Source: Thelonectria olida (taxonomy: Eukaryota > Ascomycota > Sordariomycetes > Hypocreales > Nectriaceae). From it: a stretch of 64,000 nucleotides of DNA. Below the pieces are notes generated by a model, which did not search any database, was not told where the DNA came from, and saw only the letters and a list, made by a program, of their open reading frames with translations. Positions within the stretch are counted from its first letter, which is position 1; every line of letters starts with the position of its first letter. Of the stretch, positions 1-64,000 are shown piece after piece. The DNA lies in assembly GCA_020736575.1 (NCBI GenBank), contig JAGPYM010000048.1:124001-188000 (forward strand). The letters are read 5' to 3'. Position numbers and translations under genes: made by a program.

Positions 1-534
1 CTTTGGCCGCTGGCGGATGTGTGGAATGGAATGGCCAGGTCTTCCAACAGGGCAAGCGATTGAAGGATTCCTACAAGGCAGCACCGAGCACGAAGAACGT
101 CAGGATTGAGAGTTGGTGGGAGCGTATGCTTCACGTCTCTTCCCGACAGTGGGTAGACTACTTTGGAGAGCTTGCTAGGGATGGGGACTTTGACGGCGAT
201 ATGCTTGAGCCTTGAGGACCAGATTGCCGTCTACGCTGTCTTCGAAGATGTACTGCGTCAAGAGCTCTTCGATTTCGTGGAGGCGTAGAATCTACACAAA
301 ATACGCCTCCAGAAGAACCGGCCTCATGTTGTCCACGGCCAACCCTGGATGAATTACCATTACCCTGACCCAAGCAAGGCTTGCAATTGGGGAATTCCCA
401 TCGATCGCACAGTTTTAGGTGAATTGGTACGACCATTGGCTAACATCAATATCAACACATGTCTAGAGCCGGAGACAAAGGGCTGGTGCCGCCAAGTTCT
501 TAGAGAAATGGGTTACGATAGTTATAGGTTTTAG
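1..534 (+). pseudogene. Decayed integrase-like (rve) gene, C-terminal part
   Basis: The first frame ends in a stretch containing RIESWWERM and then QWVDYFGELARDG. This matches the catalytic-Glu region (NQRIESWWEKL) of the integrase at 58475-60249. Homology continues in a second frame from about 218 (DQIAVYAVFEDVLRQEL; NWGIPIDRTVLGELV; KGWCRQVLREMGYD) to a TAG at 532-534. The gene is broken by a frameshift near 212 and an in-frame TAG near 286, where the other copy reads through. The 5' part with the first two catalytic Asp residues lies outside the window. The terminal block aligns with the C-terminal extension of the 58-kb copy, so both copies share the longer protein form. No inverted repeat is visible here. 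It abuts a truncated pogo element. Confidence 0.75.
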
Positions 535-547
535 GATGTTTGTACAC

Positions 548-1313
548 CTCTCATGCGCTAATACGCGAAAGCCAGGGAGGCGGGCATGAGGAAGGAGATT
601 ATCTTATCCGGTTGGAGATTTACTGGAAATTGGCCTATCAACCGTCACAAAGCTCTAACACATCCGGAAATTCAACCGGACAAAGAAAAACCGCTGGAAC
701 AGTTCCAGACACCGAGCCCTCCTCCACTGCACTCAGATGATACGCCGAAAACGAGCCGGCAAGTGAGGGATATGGCCAAACACCGAAGTCGTCCGACCAG
801 GCGGAAGTACAGTAAGATCGCAAAGGGTTTGGAAGCTTTAGAGATGAAGGTGGCCGTTCAGAATGCGCGGATTACTGGTCTCGAAGAGCAGATGGCCCAG
901 CTGCGGCGAGGGAAGAAAAGAAAGGCGGTACCGAACCCGAACCGACGATTCATGGCTCTGGCGGAGGCTCTAGCGGCTGGGGAAGCTCTTCCTGACTCAA
1001 AGGAGGTAGAAATAGAAGTGGATGTGGATGAGGAGGTCGAGTCGGTGATTGAGGTGGGTGTCAGGTCAGAGGACGAAAGTGAGGAATTTATGGTCGTAAC
1101 AAAGCACTGCCAGCGCACACGGAGCGGTCGGGAGGTCAAAAAACCACACAGAGAGTAAAATTCAAGCAATTCTCTATAGAAAATCCGAGTGGCTTCATTT
1201 TTAATGGACAAGGTGGTTGGTTTCTGCGTGCATCAAATATTGGATTTTGTATGGGGCGATGATTTTTTGTGCTATGCTTTAAGTGGTGTGATTCTTTAAG
1301 TGGTGGGGGATGG
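548..1313 (+). mobile_element. 3' fragment of a pogo/Fot1-like transposon
   Basis: The sequence from about 548 is a close relative of the 3' third of the pogo-like element at 29934-32158. It starts inside the transposase (shared block around GCGGGCATGAGGAAGGAG) and ends in a degenerate copy of the terminal repeat, with two decayed 'AAGTGGT' units and GGGATGG followed by TA at 1314-1315. The 5' two thirds are missing and the integrase remnant abuts directly. The terminal repeat differs from the 30-kb copy mostly by transitions, as expected of RIP. Confidence 0.8.
586..1158 (+). pseudogene. Pogo-like transposase, C-terminal remnant
   Basis: This is a 190-residue open frame equal to the transposase C-terminus. 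A linker (KTSRQVRDMAKHRSRPTRRK) is followed by a coiled-coil-like segment (ALEMKVAVQNARITGLEEQM), a basic patch (RRGKKRKAVPNPNRR) and an acidic tail (EVEIEVDVDEEVES). It is nearly identical to the C-terminus at 31536-32003. The helix-turn-helix and DDE domains are absent, so it cannot be a working transposase. The frame is open and begins with an ATG by chance. It could be expressed as a coiled-coil fragment, but nothing shows that. Confidence 0.7.
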
Positions 1314-1315
1314 TA

Positions 1316-1656
1316 TGTATTTATCTCGCCCTCAGCTTGATGCCACAATCGCTGCGTACTCTTTCAGTACAGCGATGAACCTCTTTGTGACGATAAACCT
1401 CTACACGCTTTATCTTCCAACTCGTCGAGAGCTTCCCGGGTCTTCTTCAAACTCCGTCATGTCGCTCCGCATGCGAAAGAGACGAACATTCCTAGCTGTT
1501 GCCATCGCTCAGCTCTTAGTCGCTACTGCGGTTGAGGCCGTCTTTTTTACTCTGTCCTTCGCCTTCGGGAAAAGACATGCATGGCCGATATTCTTGCTCA
1601 ACTCCATTGTTCCCATGAATATGTGGAGAGAAGTGAGTCAAGCTCCCGAGTCTTGA
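1316..1656 (+). other. Possible membrane-protein fragment, unidentified
   Basis: An open frame starts at the pogo 3' boundary and ends in TGA at 1654-1656. It contains a hydrophobic stretch (FLAVAIAQLLVATAVEAVFF) preceded by a basic cluster (SLRMRKRRT), like a transmembrane segment with its flank. I do not recognise the family. It is in the same frame as the DUF3435 remnant that follows, but its sequence does not look like that family, so it may be a separate gene fragment or a chance ORF. Confidence 0.2.
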
Positions 1657-1659
1657 TGG

Positions 1660-2496
1660 CAGCTAACAGACACAAGTCTTTTCCCTCCGGGCCGTGGGGA
1701 AAAGCGTTCTCGTCTTGGTTTGGTGGTGAATCTGGTGAACGTCAAGAAGTCAGCGGGAGTATCCGAAAAGAAGGTTTTCGGCTTTCACGAAGAAGACACT
1801 CTTCTGCATGATCCTATACTCCACATGCTATCTTTGGCGTTTGCCGACGGAGCATTCCGCAATGAGTTTTCCAGTCCTGAACAAATCTATGAGATGGTTG
1901 TTCCGGCGCACATGGATCGGGTGAAAATACCGTGGAAAGAGGAATGGCGAGGGCGACCGATTTTCCGCGATGTCGATGGCTTGAAGGTGTCTCTTGAGAA
2001 GGCTCTGAAGTATTGTAAAACAAGGGGGGATTTGATACGCCTTGGTCGAGCCTTAGGCTATGCTAAGAGGCTCGAGTTCTATGATATTCGCCGTGGGTCT
2101 GGCAAGAAGCTGAATGGTAAGGGAAGATTGTTAATACCTGAACTCTACTAACCCTTTATAGAGGCGCTCACCCCCGAGGAACGGAACAAGGCCATGGGCC
2201 ACCGGTTAGGAGACTCCTCTACTTTTGTGCGATATTACATGACCGATTTCATTGGTGCAGACACCCAAGCCATTGCATTCGGGAGCGACCCGCAGACAGA
2301 TTTCGTCAATTTGATGAGCCGGCTCGTCCGCCATGGGAATGCTCCAACAAAATTGACTGAACAGCAAAAAGACGAGATTGCCAATGATCCCAAATTAGTC
2401 AAGTATCTGCGGAAACGCTCCCAAGCCATGGCAAGATTCAAGAAGCAAGGTTATCCATCCTATACAGCTGCAAAAAAGGCTGGCGTTGGTAAGCGG
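1660..2496 (+). pseudogene. DUF3435 (captain-type tyrosine recombinase) remnant
   Basis: The frame reads LFPPGRGEKRSRLGLVVNLV, then FGFHEEDTLLHDPI and LSLAFADGAF, which are typical of fungal DUF3435 proteins. A 45-bp intron (2117-2161, GTAAGG...CTAACCCTTTATAG) removes cleanly and joins KKLN to EALTPEERNKAMGHRL. The region RRGSGKKLN plus GHRLGDSSTFVRYY corresponds to the recombinase C-terminal active-site region, followed by the family tail (LTEQQKDEIANDPKLVKYLRKR). The N-terminal half is missing (TGA at 1654-1656). The 3' side runs to the convergent ABC transporter stop at 2515. DUF3435 proteins include the captains of Starship giant elements; this copy is truncated and probably inactive. Confidence 0.72.
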
Positions 2497-2514
2497 TATG
2501 AGAAATATCCACAT

Positions 2515-5500
2515 TTACTCCTTCTTCTCCTTCTTGAGGCTCTTCTTGGGCATGCGCACAAGCCAGTAGAGGAAGGGGGCAGCAGCCATGTTGAAGATAA
2601 TGTACACCCAAAGGAGACCAAAGTTACGCCATCGGTCGCTGTAGTGATAGCCCACGGCGGCGAGGTAGGTGTTGGTGTCGCTGATAGTGCAGAACTTGCA
2701 GGTATCAGTGGCACCCTTGTCGACTAGATAGCCACCAACTTGATCGATATAGCTCTCCATGAACTCTCCGCATGTCTTGTTTGCGATGGGAGCGAAAGAG
2801 AGGAACTCGTTGCTGGCGCATGTGACATCGACGTTGGCGACCGCTGTTGATAGCATACCGCTCACGAGATATGAGAACGGTGACACCCGGTACATGAAGA
2901 TCCAGAAGCGGGGGAGAGTCTCAGAGGTGGCAAGAATACCACAGAAGATCAAGCAGAGCATGAACAACAAGTTGGCAATGTTGGCACCAGCCTCGGCAGT
3001 CTCGAACCCGGCAATAATAAAAGTCGAGAAAGTTCCGGTGAAGATGAGCAACATGAACAGGAACAGGAACATCAGGCCACCACGCTCAGTCAGCTGACCA
3101 GCCTCAGAGGCGTTGTTGTAAAGTCCGACAGGATAGTACCAGCAGAAGAACATGATGACGGCCATGAGAGCATTCCAGGGAAGTTCGACAATAAGCTGCG
3201 AAAGCATGAAAACCCTCCACGAGTAGACCTTGGAGGGTCTTTCGCGGGCCTCGTACAGAGAACGTTGAATAACAAACTGCGGCATTGACTGTTGAACGAG
3301 CTGACCGAAAATAGTGAGCAAGTTGAAGATGGCGAACATCTGGTTCTGAAGACCTTGGATACTGTTGGGAGCCTTGAAGAAGACGAAACCGATGAAGAGG
3401 GCGATGAGCGTGCACAGAGCGGCCTTGGAGTAGATGTAGACGGGGGAACGCCAGTACTGCTGGAAAACACGGTAGAGGACTTCCTTGAGCTGCTCCATGA
3501 AGGGAGCGGCGAACTCGCGGTACTTGCCAGGATCTTCATCAGTAAGGTTCGCAACATCCTTACCCTCGTGCTTGATCCTCTCCAACTCGGCCTGAACGGC
3601 GTTGTACTCGGGACTCGTACGCCAAGTGTTGAACCAATCGACATCAGAGTGAGAACCAGGAGCAGCACCAATGACCTCCAACATCCACTCGGCGGGGTTG
3701 GCCTCAGGGGGACAGGAATGGCCACTGTTGCGCTCAAAGTAGCTAGTCATGATCTTAGAGTGGTCGCCAATGTCACCAAAGTATACCGTCTTGCCACCCT
3801 TGGCAAGGAAGAGGAGTCGGTCAAATCGCTGGAACAGCATGGCAGAAGGCTGGTGAATGGTGCAAAGGACAGCCTGACCAGCCTTGGTAAGCTTCTCCAG
3901 AAGGTCAAGAATAGCCCAAGAAGTCTGCGAGTCAAGACCAGAAGTAGGCTCATCGACGAAGAGCAATAGAGGGGGCTTAGCAGCAAGCTCGACACCAATG
4001 GTAAGACGCTTTCGCTGTTCAACGTTAAGACCCTCACCAGGGACACCAACGATAGCATCGGCATATTCCTCCATGTCCAGAAGCTTGATAACCCGTTCAA
4101 CGTATTCGAGCTTCTCGGCCCTGGGGGTACTGGCGGGCTGGCGAAGAAGGGCACTGAAGTTGAGGGCCTCGCGGACAGTTGAAGTCTGCAAGTGAAGATC
4201 CTGCTGTTGAACGTAACCGGTATTGCGCTGGAAAGACATGTCTCGAGGCTTTCCATCAACCAACATCTGACCAGTGATGACACCCATAGACGTACGGTCA
4301 GCTAGGCAATCCAGGAGCGTGGTCTTGCCGGCGCCGCTCACACCCATCAACGCAGTCAAAGTACCGGGCTTAACCCAACCATCAACATTGTCCAGGATGC
4401 GACGAGTTTCGTCCTTGATCTTGACCTCGTAGCAGACATCATGCCACTGGAAGACGGAAGTCTGTTGCTGGAGCATACCACCGGTGTCCTTCTGGGTGCG
4501 GCTTCGGGTTCGCTCAGCGGTGACGACGGGGCCAATGTGCGCCATGGCAGCCTCGGGATCGCTGTGCTTCTTCTCGGCGTCGGCAACGGCAGCGGGCTTG
4601 TGGCCACGTCGGTAGACAAGAACCTCACCCTTGGACTTCTTCTCAGAAACTAGTTCGGCAGAAACCATATAGGTAATGCTAAAAAGAATGATCCAGGCAA
4701 TGACGATGCCAAAGTTGCGCCATCTGTTCTCCCACTTGTAGTCAAAGTTCGATTCGGCATAGCTATCACCACTGACAAAGTCGTCGCCCTCCACCGAGCC
4801 AACAGCGCTGCAGACTCGATTCGAAGCCGGGATGTTCTGATATCCGTCGACAGCCTGGCTCGGCACAAAGCTAACACACCTGAACTTTCGGCCATGGAAT
4901 TCGTTGACAATCAAGCTCTCGAATGCGTAGGCAAGCGGGTCAATGTAATACAGCCACTTGCACCAACGGAGCATGTAGCGCTTTGGAATAACGAAACCGG
5001 TGAAAATGACGAGATCCAAGATCAACACGGCCGTGGGAACGAGAGCCTGGAACAGAGTACGACAAGCCGAGGCGATAGTACGGAAGATCATCGACATGAC
5101 CAGGGCAGTGACGAAAGAGATGAGCAGGAAGAAGAAGAAGGAGCCGACCTCTCGTCGCAAATTAGTCATAAAGTAAAGCGACAAATTGAACACAATGGTA
5201 TTGGCGATTGTATACGGCATGTGGCAAAGCATCGAGGACACGGCTTCGGCAGAGGGGTGATAGAGTGCATATCGACTATGCTTCTCGACAATCGGGCGTT
5301 GGGAGTACAGGGTCAGAATCTGAGAGAGGTCAGCAGAGTTCAGGTTCGGTCGAGGAACAAACTCACCTCCAGAGCACTGGAGGCGGCATTCATCAAACAA
5401 GCAAAGAACAAGAGAGCACCACGTTGGAAGAAACTATCGGAATCGTCGTCCAGATTGTAGAAAATAGATCCGATGATTAAAGACATGCCGAAGTTACCAA

Positions 5501-54083: not shown

Positions 54084-54399
54084 TGAATTTGGAGAATAGG
54101 GGACCAAAACTTTCGGTCCCTCTAAGGAATGAAAATAAGTCAGTTCTTAAACATAGGATCAATTGGCCCTTACGGCAGCCTTTTCACAGCGAGCAAAAGG
54201 AATTAAGTAAGTCAGCTGCCCTACTTTTCGCGTCACCAACTTCTCGCGGAGCCTCACTTACACGAGCCAATAACCAACAGCCAACTTCAAGTATATAAAA
54301 CAATAACCAATTGGTTCGTTTTTGGTGTTTTCTAATAGAGGAAATTAGGCTAATTATAAATATTTCAAAATTATATAATAATAATTAAAAGCCAACCAG

Positions 54400-54836
54400 C
54401 TATTCTGAATCTTCTAATTCGTCACATTCAACCCGTCTCGTTGTTGTCCTGACATTTGCAATCGATGCAAAGAGCTTATTTGGATCTTTTTCAACAGCAG
54501 CTCTTTTCCTCTTTTTTAATTGGGCTCATAGCCTCCCACGGCGGCATACCATAGCGGCGTCCGACTGTAAGTGTCCTTCGCGTCGGTTTCGACTGTGTTC
54601 TGAAGGAGGCAATTAGTCGCTTCCTCAACTCCGAAGTATGTCGCCAAATGAAGTCCCGTCATTTGCCTCGGAACTTGTTGGCTGTACTGTCGATACCATA
54701 GGTGCTTTGAGTACCCCTCGTTTGGGATTAATACTTCGCTCGATGCCTCGACTTGAGCTTTTTCCTCGAGAAATTTCACGACGTCCGGACAAGAAGTCGG
54801 AGCATCGCGAGCTTGATGTCCCCAGTCACGCGCAGA
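54400..54836 (-). pseudogene. Ankyrin-repeat protein, 3' remnant truncated by the hAT end
   Basis: The minus frame has ARDAPTSCPDVVKFLEEKAQ, then QMTGLHLATYFGVEEATNCL and DTYSRTPLWYAAVGGYE, which are ankyrin repeats. A shift near 54516 leads to a basic, NLS-like tail (LKKRKRAAVEKDPNKLFASI, ending ECDELEDSE) and a stop at 54400. The 5' side runs straight into the hAT terminal repeat at 54832, so everything upstream is lost from this locus. Fungal ankyrin proteins of this type often carry NACHT or nucleoside-phosphorylase N-termini, but none is visible. Confidence 0.65.
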
Positions 54837-57660
54837 CTTGCCCATCCTGATATCATATCCGATATGATAAATTATCCTGATATCGGGATAACACACTATC
54901 CTGATATGATATCAGCATAGCAGCTTTAGCAGCTTTAGCAGACATGATATAATAGAAGATACATAGTTTTGAAGGGATCGTTTCGGGTATTATTAATCTA
55001 GATCATCATCCGAATCAACCCGAACTCCACTGTTGAGTTCGCCATCCACAACAAGCCCTCTACCACCACGTGATGATGGTATAATAAGTTCTTCACGTAG
55101 CCAGTTGCCGATGCATTCGACCTTCTCCAGGTTGGCACATGACATCCTTTCGCGATCCCATGATAAGGTACGTCTCCCTCCACTGAATACTGACTCAGGG
55201 TCAGCGGAACCAGGTGGAACAGATAGAACATCGATGGCCATTCGACTGAGACGCGGGTATGTCCGAATCTGGTCTCTCAAGCACCACCAAGTGAGTGGAG
55301 AACCTTCAATTTTGACGGGCTGAGCACGGATAAATTTTTCGAAATCATCTACATCCCTGGTCAGGTCCTCAGCGACCATCATCTCGTTTAAGAGCCGATG
55401 AAGCTCGTTCGGCTGTGCCTGCCTCGGACTGGATGTCCCGCCCGGCGACGAAGGTCCAAGGCCGGGTGCCATCTTATATTCTTTCTCCCATATTGCACGT
55501 GCGTGTCGAATAGCAGTTGTTGCCCACTCCTCCTTCCAGTGTATCTCGAGGTAGCGAGCTCGCTTTGACGGGTCGAGAAGGAGAGCAGTTGCATAGATAG
55601 GCGACTCTTCGGACAGGGTATAATACTTATCAAGCACGAACCAACCCATATCAATCGAGTGTAGCATGAGAGGGTCATATGTCTGCTCTGCTTGATAGAG
55701 TTCCTACGGCGAAGATGAAAAGGCTGGCTTAGTGGTTTTGGATCAGATGGAAATGGGGGTGAGACTATTTACCTTCTTCTGTTCGTAATGTCGAAGTAGT
55801 ATATCCATGATCATAAGGTTCTGAGAGAGTGTTGTTGTTGCGCCTTGAGCCCATAAAGTCGTAGACGTGAAGGGCTGGAGGAATGCATGCATCTTTTCTA
55901 GGTAATCCCAATCCGAAGAGGTAAGAATATCATCACCCAAAGCCTTATCATGGTCAAGCAGGAACTGCTTAACACATTGCTTTTTCCTCATCAGATTATC
56001 GATCATTCTATACCATGAATTCCAGCGTGTGTCATTATCGATGCCAAGTCGTAACTGAATTCGTTCATCCCATGCATCACTGTGGACGGCCGAGTTGCGT
56101 AGCCATGACGCGATCCGGTGCAATTTGCGTAGGGCGGGAATCATAAACCGGACCTTCCTATCAGCAGCGCTCTCCAATCTATTATTACCTGGCCCTGGAG
56201 GAGAATTCCCCTTTGAGGCTGACACCTTCTGGGGAGCAAAATCCCTGGAGCATTTCGTTCGAGCTATATTTTGATCCGGCTTGTTTGGTGCGTCATCACT
56301 AGATGCGCCGTACGCAACGGGATAAATTCGTCCATACAGGTCATCACCGGTGGCGCCGCTGGCGACATCGAGGGCCGCCCGAAGTGCTTCGCGTGAAGAT
56401 GCGAAAAGCGCGGCTTGAAGGGATAGGTTGATGATATGAAGGATGCAGCGGATACAGTGATGTTTTGGATCCCAGTCCATCTACACAGGGTCAGATCTAG
56501 AAAGGACAAATAAGGCAGGATGCCACGTACTTGATGTTCCTGCTTAAGTCTGATTGATAAATTGTCCAAGCACGTGTCGTTGGATGTTGCATTATCGCCA
56601 GTATGGCAGCCAAGTTGATCCGTAATACCATAATGGACTAGTGTAGAGAAGATCAGTCGAGACTGATGCTCACCGGAGTGGCTGTGTCGAATCTCTCGTA
56701 GGCCAAGGAGGGCTCTCCTGAGTTGGTAATCCTTGTCAACCCACCGTGCACACACTGCTAGCATTCCATGGCGATGTGGTGACGTCCAAAGATCAGATGA
56801 GATGTGGACCTTCAAAACGGCGCTTTGTAGCATAGCTTTCAACTGCGACTGGTACAGGCTAAATTTTGCCGTTATGTGATGCATTGCTTCATGTCGTGAA
56901 GTCATGATCAGGTCCTCGATCGCGGGATTACAGGCCAGCATGACATCCTGCATCTCATCCCACGTAACCGCTGAGAAGGGTAGTCGACGCCGTGTGAGGA
57001 GAGCGACCATGCTCTCGGTATAACGCTGGGAATTGAAAACGCTACGCAGAGCTGATTCTGATGGATCTTGCCGCATAGTAATCATTAAGCCTAGCTTGCT
57101 TTAACGGAGGACCGGTGTCCGATGACCGCTCGAGTATTGTGCGATCCGAAGAGTGGATGGCGTTGCCGTGTTTGCGCTTCGCATGGTACAGGGCGTTATC
57201 GCGTTTCGGATTTGACCAGGTTTGATCTGGGGAACAGAGAAGGCATTCATAGACTACTGCACCCTTCGTCCTACGCTTCCCCGATGGTCCTAGTTGGCCC
57301 TTATTCGGATATGTCGCGCGGAATATGCAGTCGAAGTTCAGGATCTCAGATGGCACTGATTCTGCATCAACAACAGAATCATTGGCCATCGGAGAATGTG
57401 AAGTATAGTCTGTAGGCTGGTGTGATGGCGAGGCCATACTTGGGATACTTGGAAGAATAAAGAAAGTTGTGTCGACTGGTCGACATACTTGAATCAGGCG
57501 GTGAGACTTTAACCAATATAATAAAACCTGAACAATCAGGGTTGGCAGTTTATCCTGATATCTATCTTGATATCAGGATAAGAGAGCCTAGCTTTATCCG
57601 ATATCCGATATATATCATATCGGATATATCAGGATAGCATATCAGGATAGGCAAGTCTGC
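54832..57660 (-). mobile_element. hAT transposon with palindrome-rich ends
   Basis: About 2.83 kb between inverted ends GCAGACTTGCC-ATCCTGATAT at 54832 and its complement ending at 57660. Both subterminal regions carry repeated TATCCTGATATC, ATATCCGATAT and ATCAGGATA motifs in both orientations. The transposase fills the interior on the minus strand. No 8-bp target duplication is recognisable with these ends (AGTCACGC against ATAACCGC), so one flank may have been rearranged. Confidence 0.78.
54993..57437 (-). pseudogene. hAT transposase with one frameshift
   Basis: Exon A (57437 to about 57070) has a BED-type zinc finger (YECLLCSPDQTWSNPKR...HAKRKHG) and ends QARLNDYYA. The following block is one frame off (SESALRSVFNSQRYTESMVA), which implies a single indel near 57060-57080. 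The rest is clean: exon B to 56531 (HISSDLWTSPHRHGMLAV; HTGDNATSND), a 50-bp intron, exon C 56480-55773 (RCILHIINLSLQAAL; NDTRWNSWYRMIDNLM), a 69-bp intron and exon D 55703-54993. Exon D ends in the dimerisation domain (YPRLSRMAIDVLSVPPGSAD, FSGGRRTLSWDRERMS). Nearly whole; it is inactive only if the frameshift is real. Confidence 0.85.
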
Positions 57661-57711
57661 ATAACCGCAGTCTCGTTGCGTATTACTGTCCTTCTTAGTT
57701 GATTCTTGTTC

Positions 57712-58003
57712 TGATGGAGCCTCGATTAATCATCATGTCATCAAGGTTATGTAATTATACAGGTTGAGCTACATATTTTACCTCATGAGGACGTGAATCA
57801 AAAACTTTATGCTCGGGCCCCCTCTCTGGCTAGCCATATACCTGGGGAAAGCCTCAAGTGGTGATAGATAGTCAAACATGATTAGAGAGAGAATGCAGAG
57901 CCTGTCATGGCTTGGGTTCTTAAGGGCTGGAGGCTATACGAGTTTGTCAGAAGCCAAAACACACAAGTGGACGGTGGACCAAGGACTACCGGTAGACATG
58001 CCA
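57712..58003 (+). repeat. Dispersed 0.3-kb repeat, copy B
   Basis: Partner of 21175-21475 in the same orientation. Compared with copy A it has more T and A at variable C/G sites, consistent with heavier RIP-like mutation. It lies between the hAT end and the integrase element. Confidence 0.75.
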
Positions 58004-58179
58004 GCGCTCTGCATATTGCATATTGATCACGGGCTGCATTACACACCAAGTACAGGGTGACGGGAAATCGACCTCTATGTTTGGAGGTTGAGGATGCATT
58101 TCTTGGATGTTCATGGTGCCGCTTTTAGAGGCCATTTTCCCTGCCGTACCTCGACGCTGACCCGCTCCCCGTGCCCCTC

Positions 58180-58213
58180 TACGGTCGCACATTACCACAT
58201 GGGTGACAAAACC
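58180..58213 (+). repeat. Left terminal inverted repeat of the integrase element
   Basis: Starts TACGGTCGCACATTACCACA and ends GACAAAACC. It pairs with 61710-61743 with one mismatch (A against T in GACA-AACC). Confidence 0.9.
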
Positions 58214-58474
58214 ATGTACGACAATGACTGGAGCTATTTCGCACATAGGCTTTCGGCGTTTTTATATGGGGCTACAGTATTGATATGATAGCGCACTGTT
58301 TTCAATGTAGCAGAGCTGATGCAATACCAAGCGGTGCTGATGCCATTCCATCGGCGCCGAAGCTCCGATAATGCCGGTTCAGAGGGGCCGGGATATTGCA
58401 GCTGGGAGCCTTGGAAGGAGGTATGAACTCCGACCTCTACCACGATCTCGAATCCCTGGTCTGCGTCTCGCACA

Positions 58475-60249
58475 ATGCCGAGACCCCGTAAGGACTTGGA
58501 GCGCGTCAAGGACTGGATCCTCGAGCAGCGGCGAGAAGGACTATCCATTGACACTATATGTGCCCATCTCCGCGACGATGGGCACGTACTCGACGTCAGA
58601 ACCCTGAAAAGGAGGTTAGCGGAATGGGGTGCCCAGGAGTACTCCCCCTTCACTCAAAGATTGATACCAACACCTTCGTCGAGCTGATCAAAGGCTACTT
58701 CTACCGATACGGATATAGCGACACTTCCATCGTCCGTGATCTCAAGCGACGCGGCATCGAGATCTCCGAGCGGACTGTACAGGAGTATCGTCTGAAGCAT
58801 GGCATGAAGCGGCGCTTCCGAGATCTGGCTGAACGACAGGAGGCTATTCAAAAAGCAAGAGAGTTCCTCTTCCAAGACGACCGTCAGTCTTCAAGCATCA
58901 GAGGATTTGGCAGGGGGTATCTATACAACTACGTCCGCATCCGTGCCGGCGTCCTTGTCGGCCAGAATACCTTATATCGCGAGTACCAAACGAACCCAGA
59001 GTGGAAGAAGCGGGCCGAACAAAGACGCCTTGCTGATTGGAAGCACCGGAAGAACTTCCAGGTTCCTGGGCCTAACTTCATGTGGTCTCTCGATGGGTAT
59101 GAGAAGCTCAAGAACTTCGGCTTCTCTATCTACGCCTGTATCGACACGTACTCGAGAGCCATCATCTGGATATATGTCGGCAGGGAGAACATGACTGCGC
59201 TGAGTTCACTCAAACAGTTTCTACGGACCGTGTCGTACTCAGGGGTCCGCCCCCTTTTCACCCGCTCGGATCATGGTATCGAGACTCCTCTTTGGGCCGG
59301 AGCCCAGGCGATCCTCGCCGACCTTGATCAGACAGAATTTCGGTATACCACCGAGGATAACGACCAACGAGTCCACAGGCAGGGAGCGAGACTGAACTCC
59401 TGTCATATCTGGGGCCCAAGCACATCGAACCAACGGATCGAGTCTTGGTGGGAAAAGCTACTCAAAGGTGTCAGTCAGCGCTGGATCGCGTTCTCACACG
59501 AGCTGATTGATAGCGGCCTCTTCCAACCAAACCGTCTTGCTCACCAGATCGCGGTGTATGCTCTCTATGGACCCATGATCCGTCAAGAGGTTGCGGACTT
59601 CACGGAGATGTGGAACGGCCATCGCATCCGGCCACAGAAGAATAGGGAGCATCTCGTCGCCGGGATCCCGATGGATCTGTATAATACAAGCGAAGTGGAC
59701 TCGTGGAGAACTGGGCAGTCCATCTAGGGCCTGCAGCTCGAGATGGGCTTGCCCAGATGATGGCCGCTGTTGATTCTATCGATATAGACGATCTTCTTGA
59801 CCCAACAACAACGGACTGGTGTGATCAACAGCTCCGGGATCTTCAGTTCGATGGCCAGCTAGATGGGGAGCTTGATCATAAGCGACCACACCTCGCGATC
59901 TACTTACGGCTTAGAGACAAGATTCAGGTTCGTCTCGACTGCGGGGCAAGTCCGGTGCTGAGCATCCCAGAGAGTCCAGTTGGAAGGCAAGAGAGACTCG
60001 TACGTAAAAAGGTACTCCACCGCACTCAAAAGCTAGCTGACAATGCTTTAGCTTCAGCTCCTCGAGCAGAACTACCTTGAGCCTATTAACAATGGCCTCT
60101 CCGGAACTGAGCTACCTGGCGATATTATCAATAGTGTGGACGAGCTGATGGGGGACCTGGGTCACCTTGAGCTAGAGTACGAGGATGCCGACTACTTGAC
60201 CTCCTCGTATCAACTCCTAGGGTTCCAGCAGCGGGACCATGGGCAGTAA
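58475..60249 (+). pseudogene. rve-type D,D,E integrase-like protein (two frameshifts, one intron)
   Basis: MPRPRKDLERVKDWILEQRR starts a helical, HTH-like N-terminus (IDTICAHLRDDG; LKRRLAEWG). After a shift at a C5 run (58644-58648) a second HTH-like part follows (FYRYGYSDTSIVRDLKRRGI), then the rve core. Catalytic residues are Asp (FMWSLDGYEKLK, codon 59092), Asp (FTRSDHGIE, 59269) and Glu (NQRIESWWEKL, 59440), giving D-58-D-56-E. A second shift near 59700 leads to NWAVHLGPAARDGLAQMMAA. A 52-bp intron (60000-60051, GTACGT...CTTTAG) precedes the last 65 residues and TAA at 60249. It should join element ends to target DNA. All catalytic residues remain, so errors in the assembly could explain the shifts. 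Confidence 0.8.
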
Positions 60250-61422
60250 AGGCAGGGCCAGCCGAGAGCTCTTATCCTCTGCCTCTACCGAGAGTGCTGA
60301 GCTTATAGAGTCTCGAGCTCGTTTCTGACCCGCGCGGGTCTCGTCCACGTCGCTAGTAATAACCTCGATCTGGTCTTCTGCGCTAGCTCTCGAAGGAGGT
60401 AGAACTGGGCTCAGAGAGGGGCTCAAGGAGGGCGAGTTGAACTCGCTCCCGATTAACAAGGCTGGCTGTACCTTCACCTCGGTCTTGACTAACTCTTTCT
60501 TGATTACCATCTCCTTTTTGAACGGCTTTACGGCTGACCTCGGTGTCTTGATATGACGAGGGGCCGGGACTTGTGGTCGAGGAGGCAATGGCTCATAGAA
60601 AACAAGGAAAAGGAGATATCTGCCCTCTGTTTTACTGAAACGAAAAGGGCAGTCCTCGCCGAAAAGCTCTGCGACTGTCTGTCTCTCCCAGTCGAGGTCG
60701 CTCAGCTCCGTGATACCCTCTTTAATATGGGCGTTCTGAACGAGTCTCTTGTCGAATTGAAGAACAGAAGAGAGGGCAGGCTTGTCCTTGAACTGAGGGA
60801 AGAAGATGCTGTCGAACCAGAAGTGGACAGGTAAAGATGGTTCCTCGTCGACGAAGGGGCGCAAAGCGACCTTCAGCAGCTCTCTGGCCAAAGACCACTG
60901 AGGCTCCTCGTCTTCGTCTAGTATTTCCCATGGGTCAGGCCTCGCAAGGAAGACGGTGAGGCGCATCGAGATCTTCCGTCTGCTCTTGTTTTGGCTCTGT
61001 TTAGCCACAGCCTCACTGAGTTGCGACGAGCTCGCCCTCATACCCCTCGCGATCCGACTCTGGGTAAGTTTGGCATCTCGATACACGGCGGAGGGCCGCG
61101 ATGCTGCGAGGATACGGCCAGGGCCGTCTCCAGAGCCGGTGAAGATCGTCTGTGAGGGCGTGGAACGATCAGAGGCTGTTAGGTCGATAGACTCTATAGC
61201 GGAGGAGGTGGAAGCTGTCTCAACGTCTCGAAACGGGACTGGCGAGCTGTCGAGGATGGAGATACTCGTGGGCCAACGTCTCCCGCAATATGGACACAGA
61301 TTCGACCCTGGGTAGCTATCGCGGATGAAATCGTGGCTCCGTTGGTACGATTTAGGGGCCACGGTCTTCGGAACATCGGGACATGTCTGCGATAGGACGT
61401 GATCGGGCATATCTACGTACAA
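60217..61422 (-). CDS. Unknown partner gene of the integrase element
   Basis: 401-residue intact frame, convergent with the integrase gene and overlapping its last 33 bp. Near the N-terminus NLCPYCGRRW suggests half of a zinc site (with HDF nearby). ESIDLTASD resembles a SUMO-interacting motif. A basic stretch (KQSQNKSRRKISMRLTVFLA) precedes a folded-looking middle (DPWEILDEDEEPQWSLAREL; LPVHFWFDSIFFPQFKDKP; DCPFRFSKTEGRYLLFLVFY), and the C-terminus is low complexity with Lys/Glu and Ser/Pro runs. No family recognised. Location between the terminal repeats implies a role in transposition or its control, which is inference. An ATG at 61410 (MPDHV) is an alternative start. Confidence 0.65.
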   Translation of the reverse strand: MYVDMPDHVLSQTCPDVPKTVAPKSYQRSHDFIRDSYPGSNLCPYCGRRWPTSISILDSSPVPFRDVETASTSSAIESIDLTASDRSTPSQTIFTGSGDGPGRILAASRPSAVYRDAKLTQSRIARGMRASSSQLSEAVAKQSQNKSRRKISMRLTVFLARPDPWEILDEDEEPQWSLARELLKVALRPFVDEEPSLPVHFWFDSIFFPQFKDKPALSSVLQFDKRLVQNAHIKEGITELSDLDWERQTVAELFGEDCPFRFSKTEGRYLLFLVFYEPLPPRPQVPAPRHIKTPRSAVKPFKKEMVIKKELVKTEVKVQPALLIGSEFNSPSLSPSLSPVLPPSRASAEDQIEVITSDVDETRAGQKRARDSISSALSVEAEDKSSRLALPLLPMVPLLEP

Positions 61423-61709
61423 GACAAGGTCAGTCGCACAATCTCATGATGGATAGACCCGAGCTTACTTAGGGAATGGATGGGGATAGCCCATAACAGC
61501 TATGGGGTGGCGATGGGCTGGGTATTGACGCTGGTGTGGATGTGTGAGTGGAAGAATTGTGACGCGTCACCAGGAATTATCACGACATATTCCCTGGTGG
61601 AGATGCCACCTAAATGAAGAGATACCTTCCGTATAGTGTGCGGTACTGTAGTCTTGCAAGGGGGCACAAAGTTACTAAGTATTTCCACATGGTTGAGGCT
61701 TCCCAAAAG

Positions 61710-61743
61710 GGTTATGTCACCCATGTGGTAATGTGCGACCGTA
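61710..61743 (-). repeat. Right terminal inverted repeat of the integrase element
   Basis: Complement of 58180-58213 with one mismatch; the outer edge reads ...GTGCGACCGTA. Confidence 0.9.
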
Positions 61744-61777
61744 TCTCTATGCAGAAATCGGCTGGCAGCAACGCCGG

Positions 61778-62209
61778 ATGAACCACCCTCAGCACCTGGC
61801 AGCGCTTGACCTTGTAGCGACAACACATGCCTCTTCCGCTCATCAAAAGGCTCTCTACCGAGCGCTTCCCCATGCCGGAGAGTTTCAACTGCTTCACTCG
61901 CACTTGCGCGACATCACCCTTGGCGAGAGCGGTTTGGTCCAGGTCCTTCAAGGCTACGCAGTCGAATTTTCACGCGGTGCGATTGAGACAGTCTTTGAAA
62001 AACGCCCCAGCTTTCTCCGGGAGATTCAGTTTGCTAGAGTGGTAGACGAGACGTGTGTGGCAGGGCAAGAGTTCGACTGGGTCAGATGTCTCATCGGCGA
62101 TCTCTCGGCATGGGGGTACACACTGGATCTTGCCGGTGTGCGGAAGCTGCTGCTTCGGAGTCCAAGAGAGATTTCCCAGGAGTTTAGGTTTCGGGACTAC
62201 TCTGCATAG
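61778..62209 (+). CDS. Hypothetical protein beside the integrase element
   Basis: 143 codons from the ATG at 61778 (MNHPQHLAALDLVATTHASS), ending EISQEFRFRDYSA. The frame is also open back into the element's right terminal repeat (61733). Composition is that of a soluble helical protein (FSRGAIETVFEKRPSFLREI; DWVRCLIGDLSAWGYTLDLA). No family recognised. It could be the 3' part of a gene cut by the insertion, but no matching 5' part is visible left of 58180. Confidence 0.4.
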   Translation: MNHPQHLAALDLVATTHASSAHQKALYRALPHAGEFQLLHSHLRDITLGESGLVQVLQGYAVEFSRGAIETVFEKRPSFLREIQFARVVDETCVAGQEFDWVRCLIGDLSAWGYTLDLAGVRKLLLRSPREISQEFRFRDYSA

Positions 62210-63581
62210 CGGGACGAACGAGGCTGAGAACATACGGTGCGGTGAATGCGATCTCGCGGCTGAGCGTGGAATGATTTTGAGCGCCCAGCTAATTCCCTGG
62301 TTTCCAAATCATTAGTGTCAATTCCGACTACATTCCCACTATGCACTTGAGCGACCTCATCCCTAGTCTAGAATGACCAGGCGAAGCTCTCTGCCGATGC
62401 GGCACACGACATCAACAGATAGGGACGGCAAGAAAAGATACTCTAGACTAACTCAGCTCCGTTTATCCTATGCAGCACGTTCCATCCCCGTCTGTTGCCG
62501 GTTTGGCTATTCCGTGTCGTCGGAGGCTACATCCCGTCTCGGTGCCAAGGACGACGAGAAGCTGATGGGCAAGGACAAGGCCCTCTGGGTCCAGTGACAT
62601 GGGTTCTTGGCCAAGAACTAGGACACGAGTAGTCGTAGCCTTGCCGTCTTCCCGCGAATGAGAGACCTTTTCAATGGTGGATGAAGTTGTGGCGCGACTC
62701 ATTTCCTCGGAGACAGCAATCGCTTATATCTAGTACAGAACAATCTTTTGGCGAAGTTCGGGCGGTAACCTAGGGAATAGCTGAAACCTGGCTGTAGGAC
62801 GATATATACCCTCAGAGTGTGGAATTGTAGACGCCATCTTTGTGTGTGTTGATATTGAGTCAATGTGGAGTAAAAGAGCATGGGTCTGTAGATTCGTATA
62901 AAGAAGCTTGAGCCTGACGATTATAATTGAGAAGCGCTTTGGCTATACTTGTACCTAAAACGAGCGGGTCCCCGGTTCTCAAGCTGTGATAGGGGTGGCC
63001 AATAGGAAAGGGAATCCATATAGGCAAGGGAGCATGTCCGCCTGCTCGAACAGAATATCCTTGGCCCATGCGAACCGTTCAAGCGCCCAAGTAAGCGTTC
63101 TTTCCGGGGAGGTCGGTAGCTAGATCAGACGTTGGCGGCTCAGAGAGTCAACTCATCGGTGCTCGCCGACCTGAAAAGTCTGTTGGTGAAGTTGATCTCA
63201 ATGCAGGTAGAGCTGCTCAGGCAGCCAGTTGCGCACCTAGACGGAAGGCTCATCTGCAGCTCTGAGATGATGTACAGTATGGATCTAAGAGCAGAACCCC
63301 GTAGGAAGCCTTTTTGACAACTAGCGGGCGAATGCAGATTCCTAGGACTGGCCTGAACAGATGCAGTAGTGTCAACTAGTTGCACGGCCTTTTGTTGATC
63401 TCTCATGTCTACATAAAACCATCCCAAGGCTACCCGTGACTGATCAGCGGTCAGATCAGAACTGACCTCTGGTGCGCTGGAATGATCCGGTCGCAGGCTG
63501 TATCGCATTTGGATGTAGACCTCAGATCATTTCTGGGCGACACCCTCCAAGCCACAGGGAAAAAAATGTGGCCATTGGGAA
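62210..63581. other. Intergenic stretch without recognisable gene
   Basis: Short ORFs on both strands (for example 62463-62702 and 63140-63508, minus) have no recognisable motif. The last part is the promoter of the gene starting at 63652. Confidence 0.4.
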
Positions 63582-63588
63582 TATAAAG
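63582..63588 (+). promoter_or_regulatory. TATA box of the gene leaving the window
   Basis: TATAAAG lies 64-70 bp upstream of the ATG at 63652. Confidence 0.5.
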
Positions 63589-63651
63589 GGGCAATGGCAT
63601 CTCTCCAAGGAAGAGGAAAGAAACCAAACTCTATCGAACCATCGAGCTATT

Positions 63652-64000
63652 ATGCCAGTAACCAGACGTCAAGTAAAGTCAGGCGCCTCCGCCGCGGTAC
63701 CAGACCTCTGGCCCCAGACCCCAAAGCGAATTGGAAAAACTACAACAAAAGCTGCCAAAAGTCTGGTGGGAGCTAGAGCAACGGCGCTGAGTGAGGCGTT
63801 TGATAACGCCGAGAGTCCTGAAGCCAAGCAAAGAATCCAGGCGATCCTAGACGAGAATGCTCGTTTAAAGCATAACCTTGGCAAAATTATCGAGTCAATG
63901 GAAGTAGACGATGAGAACGTAGCTGAGGGATCCTCATCAAGTCCCGAGTCGCGAGGAGAGGAGAGCCTCTTCGTGTCCAGCACGCGCGACACCACCCCAG
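63652..64000 (+). CDS. 5' end of an unidentified gene (continues past the window)
   Basis: The ATG at 63652 opens a frame of 116 codons without a stop to the last base. It reads MPVTRRQVKSGASAAVPDLW, then a basic stretch (KRIGKTTTKAAKS), a helical coiled-coil-like segment (ESPEAKQRIQAILDENARLK HNLGKIIESME) and an acidic/Ser-rich part (DDENVAEGSSSSPESRGEES). There is a TATA box at the right distance. The family cannot be named from this part. Confidence 0.5.
   Translation, partial: MPVTRRQVKSGASAAVPDLWPQTPKRIGKTTTKAAKSLVGARATALSEAFDNAESPEAKQRIQAILDENARLKHNLGKIIESMEVDDENVAEGSSSSPESRGEESLFVSSTRDTTP

What the first reader, a model, noticed from the sequence alone, without database searches (positions are those of the whole stretch)
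58180..61743. Candidate undescribed DNA transposon built around a retroviral-type integrase and a convergent partner gene
Seen: 34-bp inverted repeats (33/34 identical) enclose exactly two genes. One encodes an rve-fold protein with Asp, Asp and Glu at 59092, 59269 and 59440; the other is an intact unknown gene running convergently and overlapping it by 33 bp. Known: rve integrases usually work in retroelements, Polintons and Ginger-type elements; fungal proteins with this RIESWW pattern are normally annotated only as 'integrase core domain'. Inferred: this is the mobile unit of that family. The near-identical ends imply recent movement.
Basis: partly seen in the sequence, partly recalled or inferred. 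Interest (0 to 1): 0.88.

Follow-up and report, generated by a model that had tools for sequence, protein, structure and literature searches.

The report
Two-gene IS3EU transposon in a fungus
This is a real cut-and-paste jumping gene of an already known group (IS3EU) in a Fusarium-like fungus; the copy seen here is damaged, and its second gene belongs to an uncharacterised protein family that probably helps the element move or persist.

Summary
The inverted repeats, the D-D-E integrase and the convergent gene are real. In the window's own 52.5-Mb genome the same ends occur at nine places on six contigs (reversed control 0), including a 968-bp internal-deletion derivative at another locus, so this is a mobile family (A). 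A second family (B, 39% transposase identity) has matching TACGG..CCGTA ends, the same transposase/convergent-partner layout, and perfect 6-bp target duplications in 3 of 5 two-ended candidates. These are published features of the IS3EU superfamily, already known in fungi. So the kind is not new. The window copy is defective: its transposase frame is broken twice and the partner's C-terminus is shifted. It shows no target duplication, and the near-identical copy on C56 shares its flanks, so recent movement is not shown. The open point is the partner: an orphan with relatives in Hypocreales and Colletotrichum, under purifying selection in family B (dN/dS 0.24-0.25), with a CxxC motif, a possible beta-grasp domain (weak) and a tail rich in SUMO-type motifs.

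The parts
58180..58213 (+). Left terminal inverted repeat, TACGG... end
61710..61743 (-). Right terminal inverted repeat, ...CCGTA end
58475..58687 (+). N-terminal transposase piece (weak Clr5-like helix-turn-helix match, below cut-off), separated from the core by a frameshift near 58644
   Evidence: alignment with full-length relative P0093
58558..59727 (+). Transposase ORF with the rva_4 integrase core; D 59092, D 59269, E 59440
   Evidence: (rva_4 E 5.3e-29)
59703..60249 (+). Displaced C-terminal part of the transposase in another frame; the end at 60249 and the intron near 60000-60052 are inferred
   Evidence: resemblance to the C-terminus of P0093 read by eye
60217..61422 (-). Convergent partner gene, 401-aa ORF; C-terminal ~20 residues shifted relative to relatives

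Best explanation
A decayed copy of a two-gene cut-and-paste DNA transposon of the IS3EU (IS3EU/GingerRoot) superfamily. Shown here: the ends, copies at other loci, the conserved catalytic triad, a sister family with the same layout and 6-bp target duplications, and selection on the sister family's partner protein. Inferred from established integrase/transposase chemistry: N-terminal helix-turn-helix domains bind the TACGG..CCGTA ends, the DDE core cuts them and joins them to target DNA with a 6-bp stagger that repair turns into the duplication. Inferred with less certainty (about 0.6): the partner is an accessory protein of the element that assists transposition or counters host silencing, perhaps through the host SUMO pathway. 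The window copy cannot make an intact transposase and could move only with protein from another copy.
For: Same ends at 9 sites on 6 contigs, control 0; deletion derivative with both ends at another locus on C101. Triad invariant in 22 of 22. Family B on C83: 36-nt TIR with TACGG..CCGTA, transposase and convergent partner, 6-bp duplication GCTGTG; GCTACG at C101:247018-248035 and GGTAGC at C118:82070-83359. Published IS3EU features: TA..TA termini, usually 6-bp TSD, no HHCC motif (PMC10045372); fungal ends TAYGG..CCRTA with TIRs over 30 bp (PMC12730594). Partner B dN/dS 0.24 and 0.25 at dS 0.25.
Against: Family A itself shows no 6-bp duplication in either of its two two-ended loci (window/C56 and C101:191812); for the window the right flank does not continue the repeat of the left flank, for C101 it is unexplained. 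Two further two-ended B-type candidates, C98:29260 and C126:107597, with degenerate second ends, have none. No transposase from Repbase IS3EU could be compared. Partners A and B are linked only by a short N-terminal motif.
Confidence: 0.88

Rival explanations
1. A TA-duplicating element (Tc1/mariner- or ESTA-like): the outer TA of each end would be the target duplication and the element proper would be CGGTCG..CGACCG.
For: Each family A two-ended locus has TA at both outer edges and no longer duplication.
Against: In family B, TACGG..CCGTA lies inside perfect 6-bp duplications in three copies, so TA is part of the end; the transposase is integrase-type rva_4.
Confidence: 0.03
2. A Ginger1/Ginger2 or Polinton-type element, the usual homes of rve integrases outside retroelements.
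For: Weak rve match (E 0.00088, below cut-off).
Against: Ginger has TGTNR ends, 4-5 bp TSD and an H2C2 finger (PMC2836005 passages); ends here are TACGG, TSD 6 bp in family B, and no finger appears. The 3.6-5.3 kb elements carry only two main genes.
Confidence: 0.02
3. Chance inverted repeats around host genes, not a mobile unit.
For: The most similar copy, C56, has the same flanks.
Against: Copies with the same ends on C98, C101, C108 and C125 have other flanks; 9 end sites against 0 in the control.
Confidence: 0.01
4. The element is IS3EU, but the partner is a passenger or a regulator that is not needed for movement (like the captured TET/JBP genes of rust IS3EU).
For: Other fungal IS3EU elements carry varied extra genes: alpha-kinase and TET/JBP; GATA, CCHC and DUF3577 proteins in Styx. 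Partners A and B are barely alike.
Against: Same position and convergent orientation in two families with 39% transposase identity; purifying selection in family B; shared N-terminal motif.
Confidence: 0.3

Closest known systems
IS3EU / GingerRoot superfamily (PMC10045372, parts 1-3 of 5 seen)
   Same: TA..TA termini, integrase-type DDE transposase, no HHCC finger found; 6-bp target duplications in sister family B
   Different: Family A shows no target duplication in 2 of 2 two-ended loci; protein-level grouping could not be tested
Fungal TET+ IS3EU of Pucciniales and Tuber (PMC12730594, passages)
   Same: TAYGG..CCRTA ends, TIRs over 30 bp, second gene in opposite orientation to the transposase
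   Different: Their second gene is an alpha-kinase, with a TET/JBP gene between; no alpha-kinase match in the partners here
Styx of Zymoseptoria (PMC10853768, passages)
   Same: IS3EU-related integrase, 6-bp duplications, accessory genes; defective copies moved by protein of others
   Different: Styx is 7927 bp with four ORFs (transposase, GATA, CCHC, DUF3577); here two main genes in 3.6-5.3 kb. Homology of the accessory genes was not tested
Ginger1 / Ginger2 (PMC2836005, passages)
   Same: Integrase-type transposase in a DNA transposon
   Different: TGTNR ends, 4-5 bp TSD and H2C2 finger, not seen here

Membership tests
IS3EU / GingerRoot | TA..TA termini; in fungi TAYGG..CCRTA | tested here: met
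   TACGG..CCGTA in families A and B
IS3EU / GingerRoot | 6-bp target site duplication | tested here: inconclusive
   3 of 5 two-ended B-type candidates; 0 of 2 two-ended family A loci, the window among them, with a rearranged flank in the window
IS3EU / GingerRoot | TIRs longer than 30 bp (as in fungal TET+ families) | tested here: met
   34 nt in the window, 36 nt in C83
IS3EU / GingerRoot | Integrase-like DDE transposase without an HHCC finger | tested here: met
   rva_4 5.3e-29 and triad 22 of 22; no H2C2 family listed by hmmscan for the window ORF, P0093 or P0055
IS3EU / GingerRoot | Transposase groups with Repbase IS3EU proteins in a tree | not testable with these tools
   Repbase and the papers' supplements were not available
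Ginger1 / Ginger2 | TGTNR termini and 4-5 bp TSD | tested here: not met
   TACGG termini; 6-bp TSD in family B
Ginger1 / Ginger2 | H2C2 zinc finger before the core | tested here: not met
   None listed at E up to 1 for the window ORF or up to 0.1 for P0055 and P0093
Tc1/mariner | Pfam Tc1/mariner-type DDE transposase | tested here: not met
   Only rva_4, rve and Sigma54_DBD listed
Tc1/mariner | TA target duplication | tested here: inconclusive
   TA flanks every complete end, but family B duplications are 6 bp and lie outside TA; no empty site found

The most novel reading that the evidence does not exclude
The convergent partner founds an undescribed family of transposon accessory proteins that tie an IS3EU transposase to the host SUMO system: an N-terminal CxxC motif, a beta-grasp (ubiquitin/PB1-like) domain and a disordered tail holding a motif of the phosphorylation-dependent sumoylation type (psi-K-x-E-x-x-[ST]-P in 22 of 22 family B homologues), used to place the transpososome or to escape silencing.
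Probability: 0.2. Interest if true: 0.65.

Novelty: new member of a known kind. Interest (0 to 1): 0.4.

Why it matters
It ties fungal proteins annotated only as 'integrase core domain' (Pfam rva_4) to complete two-gene transposons with defined ends in Hypocreales, so they can be taken out of host gene lists. It also isolates a conserved orphan partner gene whose role in transposition can be tested directly.

Full report
Setting. Named relatives of the partner proteins come from Fusarium, Ilyonectria, Dactylonectria, Metarhizium, Colletotrichum and others, so the host is probably a Fusarium-like fungus of the Hypocreales (inference). The inverted repeats 58180-58213 and 61710-61743 are 97% complementary over 34 nt.

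Family A, the window's element. A DNA search found it on six contigs: the window itself; C56:7643-11207, full length with one 1-bp indel; C98:143867-147536, about 97-98%, right end lost; C108, 93%, truncated; C101:191812-192779, a 968-bp internal-deletion derivative with both ends; C125, a left end of about 110 bp. The flanks of C98, C101, C108 and C125 differ from the window's, those of C56 are the same, and C56 aligns with the window at 99.4% over 9.5 kb, so C56 does not count as an insertion of its own. The 29-base end pattern, with up to 3 mismatches, hit 9 sites (8 perfect, one with one mismatch) against 0 for the reversed control.

State of the window copy. Relative to C98 and C108 it lacks one base near 58644 and has 8 extra bases near 59695, each breaking the transposase frame, and it lacks 23 bases near 60177. 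The piece from 58475 gives a weak Clr5 match (E 0.0022) and the core gives rva_4 at 5.3e-29. The partner's C-terminus is shifted relative to P0050 and C98. C56 has an additional 1-bp insertion in the partner. The C98 and C108 transposases have in-frame stops, and C98 carries an AT-rich insertion of about 220 bp. I saw no intact family A copy. dN/dS between family A copies is 0.52-0.88 on few changes, as expected for decay after insertion.

Family B. A transposase search found relatives at 35-39% identity on C83, C118, C109 and C110. C83:268341-273597 is a 5257-bp element with 36-nt TIRs (86%), a transposase ORF (581 aa from a GTG, 513 aa from the ATG that I used) and a convergent ORF of 458 aa, with GCTGTG on both sides. 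Short B-type derivatives at C101:247018-248035 (GCTACG) and C118:82070-83359 (GGTAGC) also have perfect 6-bp duplications. Two further two-ended candidates do not: C98:29260-30387, whose right end is degenerate, and C126:107597-108989, whose second arm matches 19 of 26 bases. So 3 of 5 show it; a chance match of six bases has probability 0.00024 per copy. The B-end pattern with up to 3 mismatches hit 11 sites, control 0.

Transposase. The triad is invariant in 22 of 22 aligned sequences: the window's ORF and 21 chosen from the 73 homologues. In one search, 72 of 73 homologues carry the rva_4 label (P0092 has none). A profile of the 22 matches the sigma-54 DNA-binding helix-turn-helix weakly (E 0.0025), in line with the sub-cut-off Pfam hit. 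That this region binds the ends is inferred.

Partner. Family B partner: 49 homologues at E up to 0.01, none with a Pfam label in that listing. hmmscan of 28 members gave five families, each in one member only, best E 0.02; the profile matched no PDB sequence at E up to 1. Two diverged copies, on C83:555614-557452 and C118:37282-39121 and close relatives of each other, give dN/dS 0.24 and 0.25 against C83:268341 at dS 0.25, without stops or frameshifts. Other pairs: C110 0.65 at dS 0.02 with a stop and a frameshift; C122 0.26 over only 61 codons with two frameshift indels. The transposase of C118 against C83 gives 0.09 at dS 0.66 with one frameshift indel; C109 0.35 and C110 0.43 at low dS with stops. 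Family A partner: 5 homologues, three of them named, all Fusarium. Partners A and B share a short N-terminal motif around HD..Y-x-G-x-N-x-C-x-x-C-G (BLASTP 5e-4 for the single comparison; hhalign P-value 0.003 but probability only 10%); the rest could not be aligned. My regular expression for the motif matched 17 of 22 B homologues and not P0050.

Tail motifs. The tails of 22 B homologues (22 of the 49) hold 90 psi-K-x-E motifs against 10.8 expected from shuffles; the homologues are related, so the counts are not independent. Psi-K-x-E-x-x-[ST]-P occurs in 22 of 22. The window partner has 3 psi-K-x-E against 0.48 expected (reached by 1% of shuffles), P0052 3 (1.7%), P0050 and P0051 2 each (6-8%), so for family A the excess is weak. 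That these are SUMO-acceptor and phosphorylation-dependent sumoylation motifs is recalled. The beta-grasp hint rests on a poor model and non-significant matches.

Do the two genes travel together? In this genome the window, C56 and C83 carry both, C98 carries both in damaged form, and C110 covers bases 540-5257 of the B element, hence both. On C118 the transposase and partner lie about 4.5 kb apart with a Tle1-like phospholipase-domain gene between them. The C109 copy at the window's left edge is cut off before the partner. The partner region at C83:555614 has no transposase match within the 9.5 kb fetched. In public proteins, 5 of 49 partner clusters have the same longest-contig length as one of the 73 transposase clusters (5442, 5558, 236966, 1222346 and 12525496 bp, read off); I take these as shared contigs. 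The other 44 could not be judged.

Missing duplication in the window. The left flank 58038-58178 is a piece of a repeat also found on C81 and C21; there it runs on past the point where the element begins, into sequence unlike the window's right flank. So the right side was exchanged or deleted, or the insertion was not simple. C101:191812 also lacks a duplication, unexplained.

Comparison. PMC10045372 (parts 1-3 of 5): IS3EU families have TA..TA termini, TSDs usually of 6 bp, no HHCC motif. PMC12730594 (passages): fungal TET+ IS3EU end TAYGG..CCRTA, TIRs over 30 bp, 6-bp TSDs, transposase and alpha-kinase genes in opposite orientations. PMC10853768 (passages): Styx, IS3EU-related, 6-bp duplications, extra genes, a copy with a non-functional integrase moved. 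PMC11645255 (passages): IS3EU the most abundant DNA transposon of Colletotrichum lupini. PMC2836005 (passages): Ginger features, not met here. On structure I file the element as a member of IS3EU; its own target duplication is not seen and the protein tree could not be made.

Noticed in passing
window 1-520 (C109:121727-124520): A truncated family B element lies across the window's left edge; it has the left end (one mismatch) and most of a damaged transposase.
   Followed up: partly
C56 against window 54376-64000: Contig C56 (15.8 kb) repeats this stretch at 99.4% over 9.5 kb: a duplicate contig, another haplotype or a segmental duplication.
   Followed up: partly
window 57001-58043 and 58038-58178: The left flank consists of two interspersed repeats with copies on C82, C106, C81 and C21; they meet at about 58038-58043.
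   Followed up: partly
L036:6903-8066 (C118): A gene with a T6SS Tle1-like phospholipase catalytic domain (E 1e-44) sits between transposase and partner of a family B relative; captured gene or nested insertion.
   Followed up: partly
L044:2402-5047 (C83:552401-555046): An 881-residue MULE transposase gene lies between a family B end and a partner copy, apparently a nested insertion.
   Followed up: partly
L011 about 3467-3692 (C98): An AT-rich insertion of about 220 bp interrupts the C98 copy of the transposase gene.
   Followed up: no
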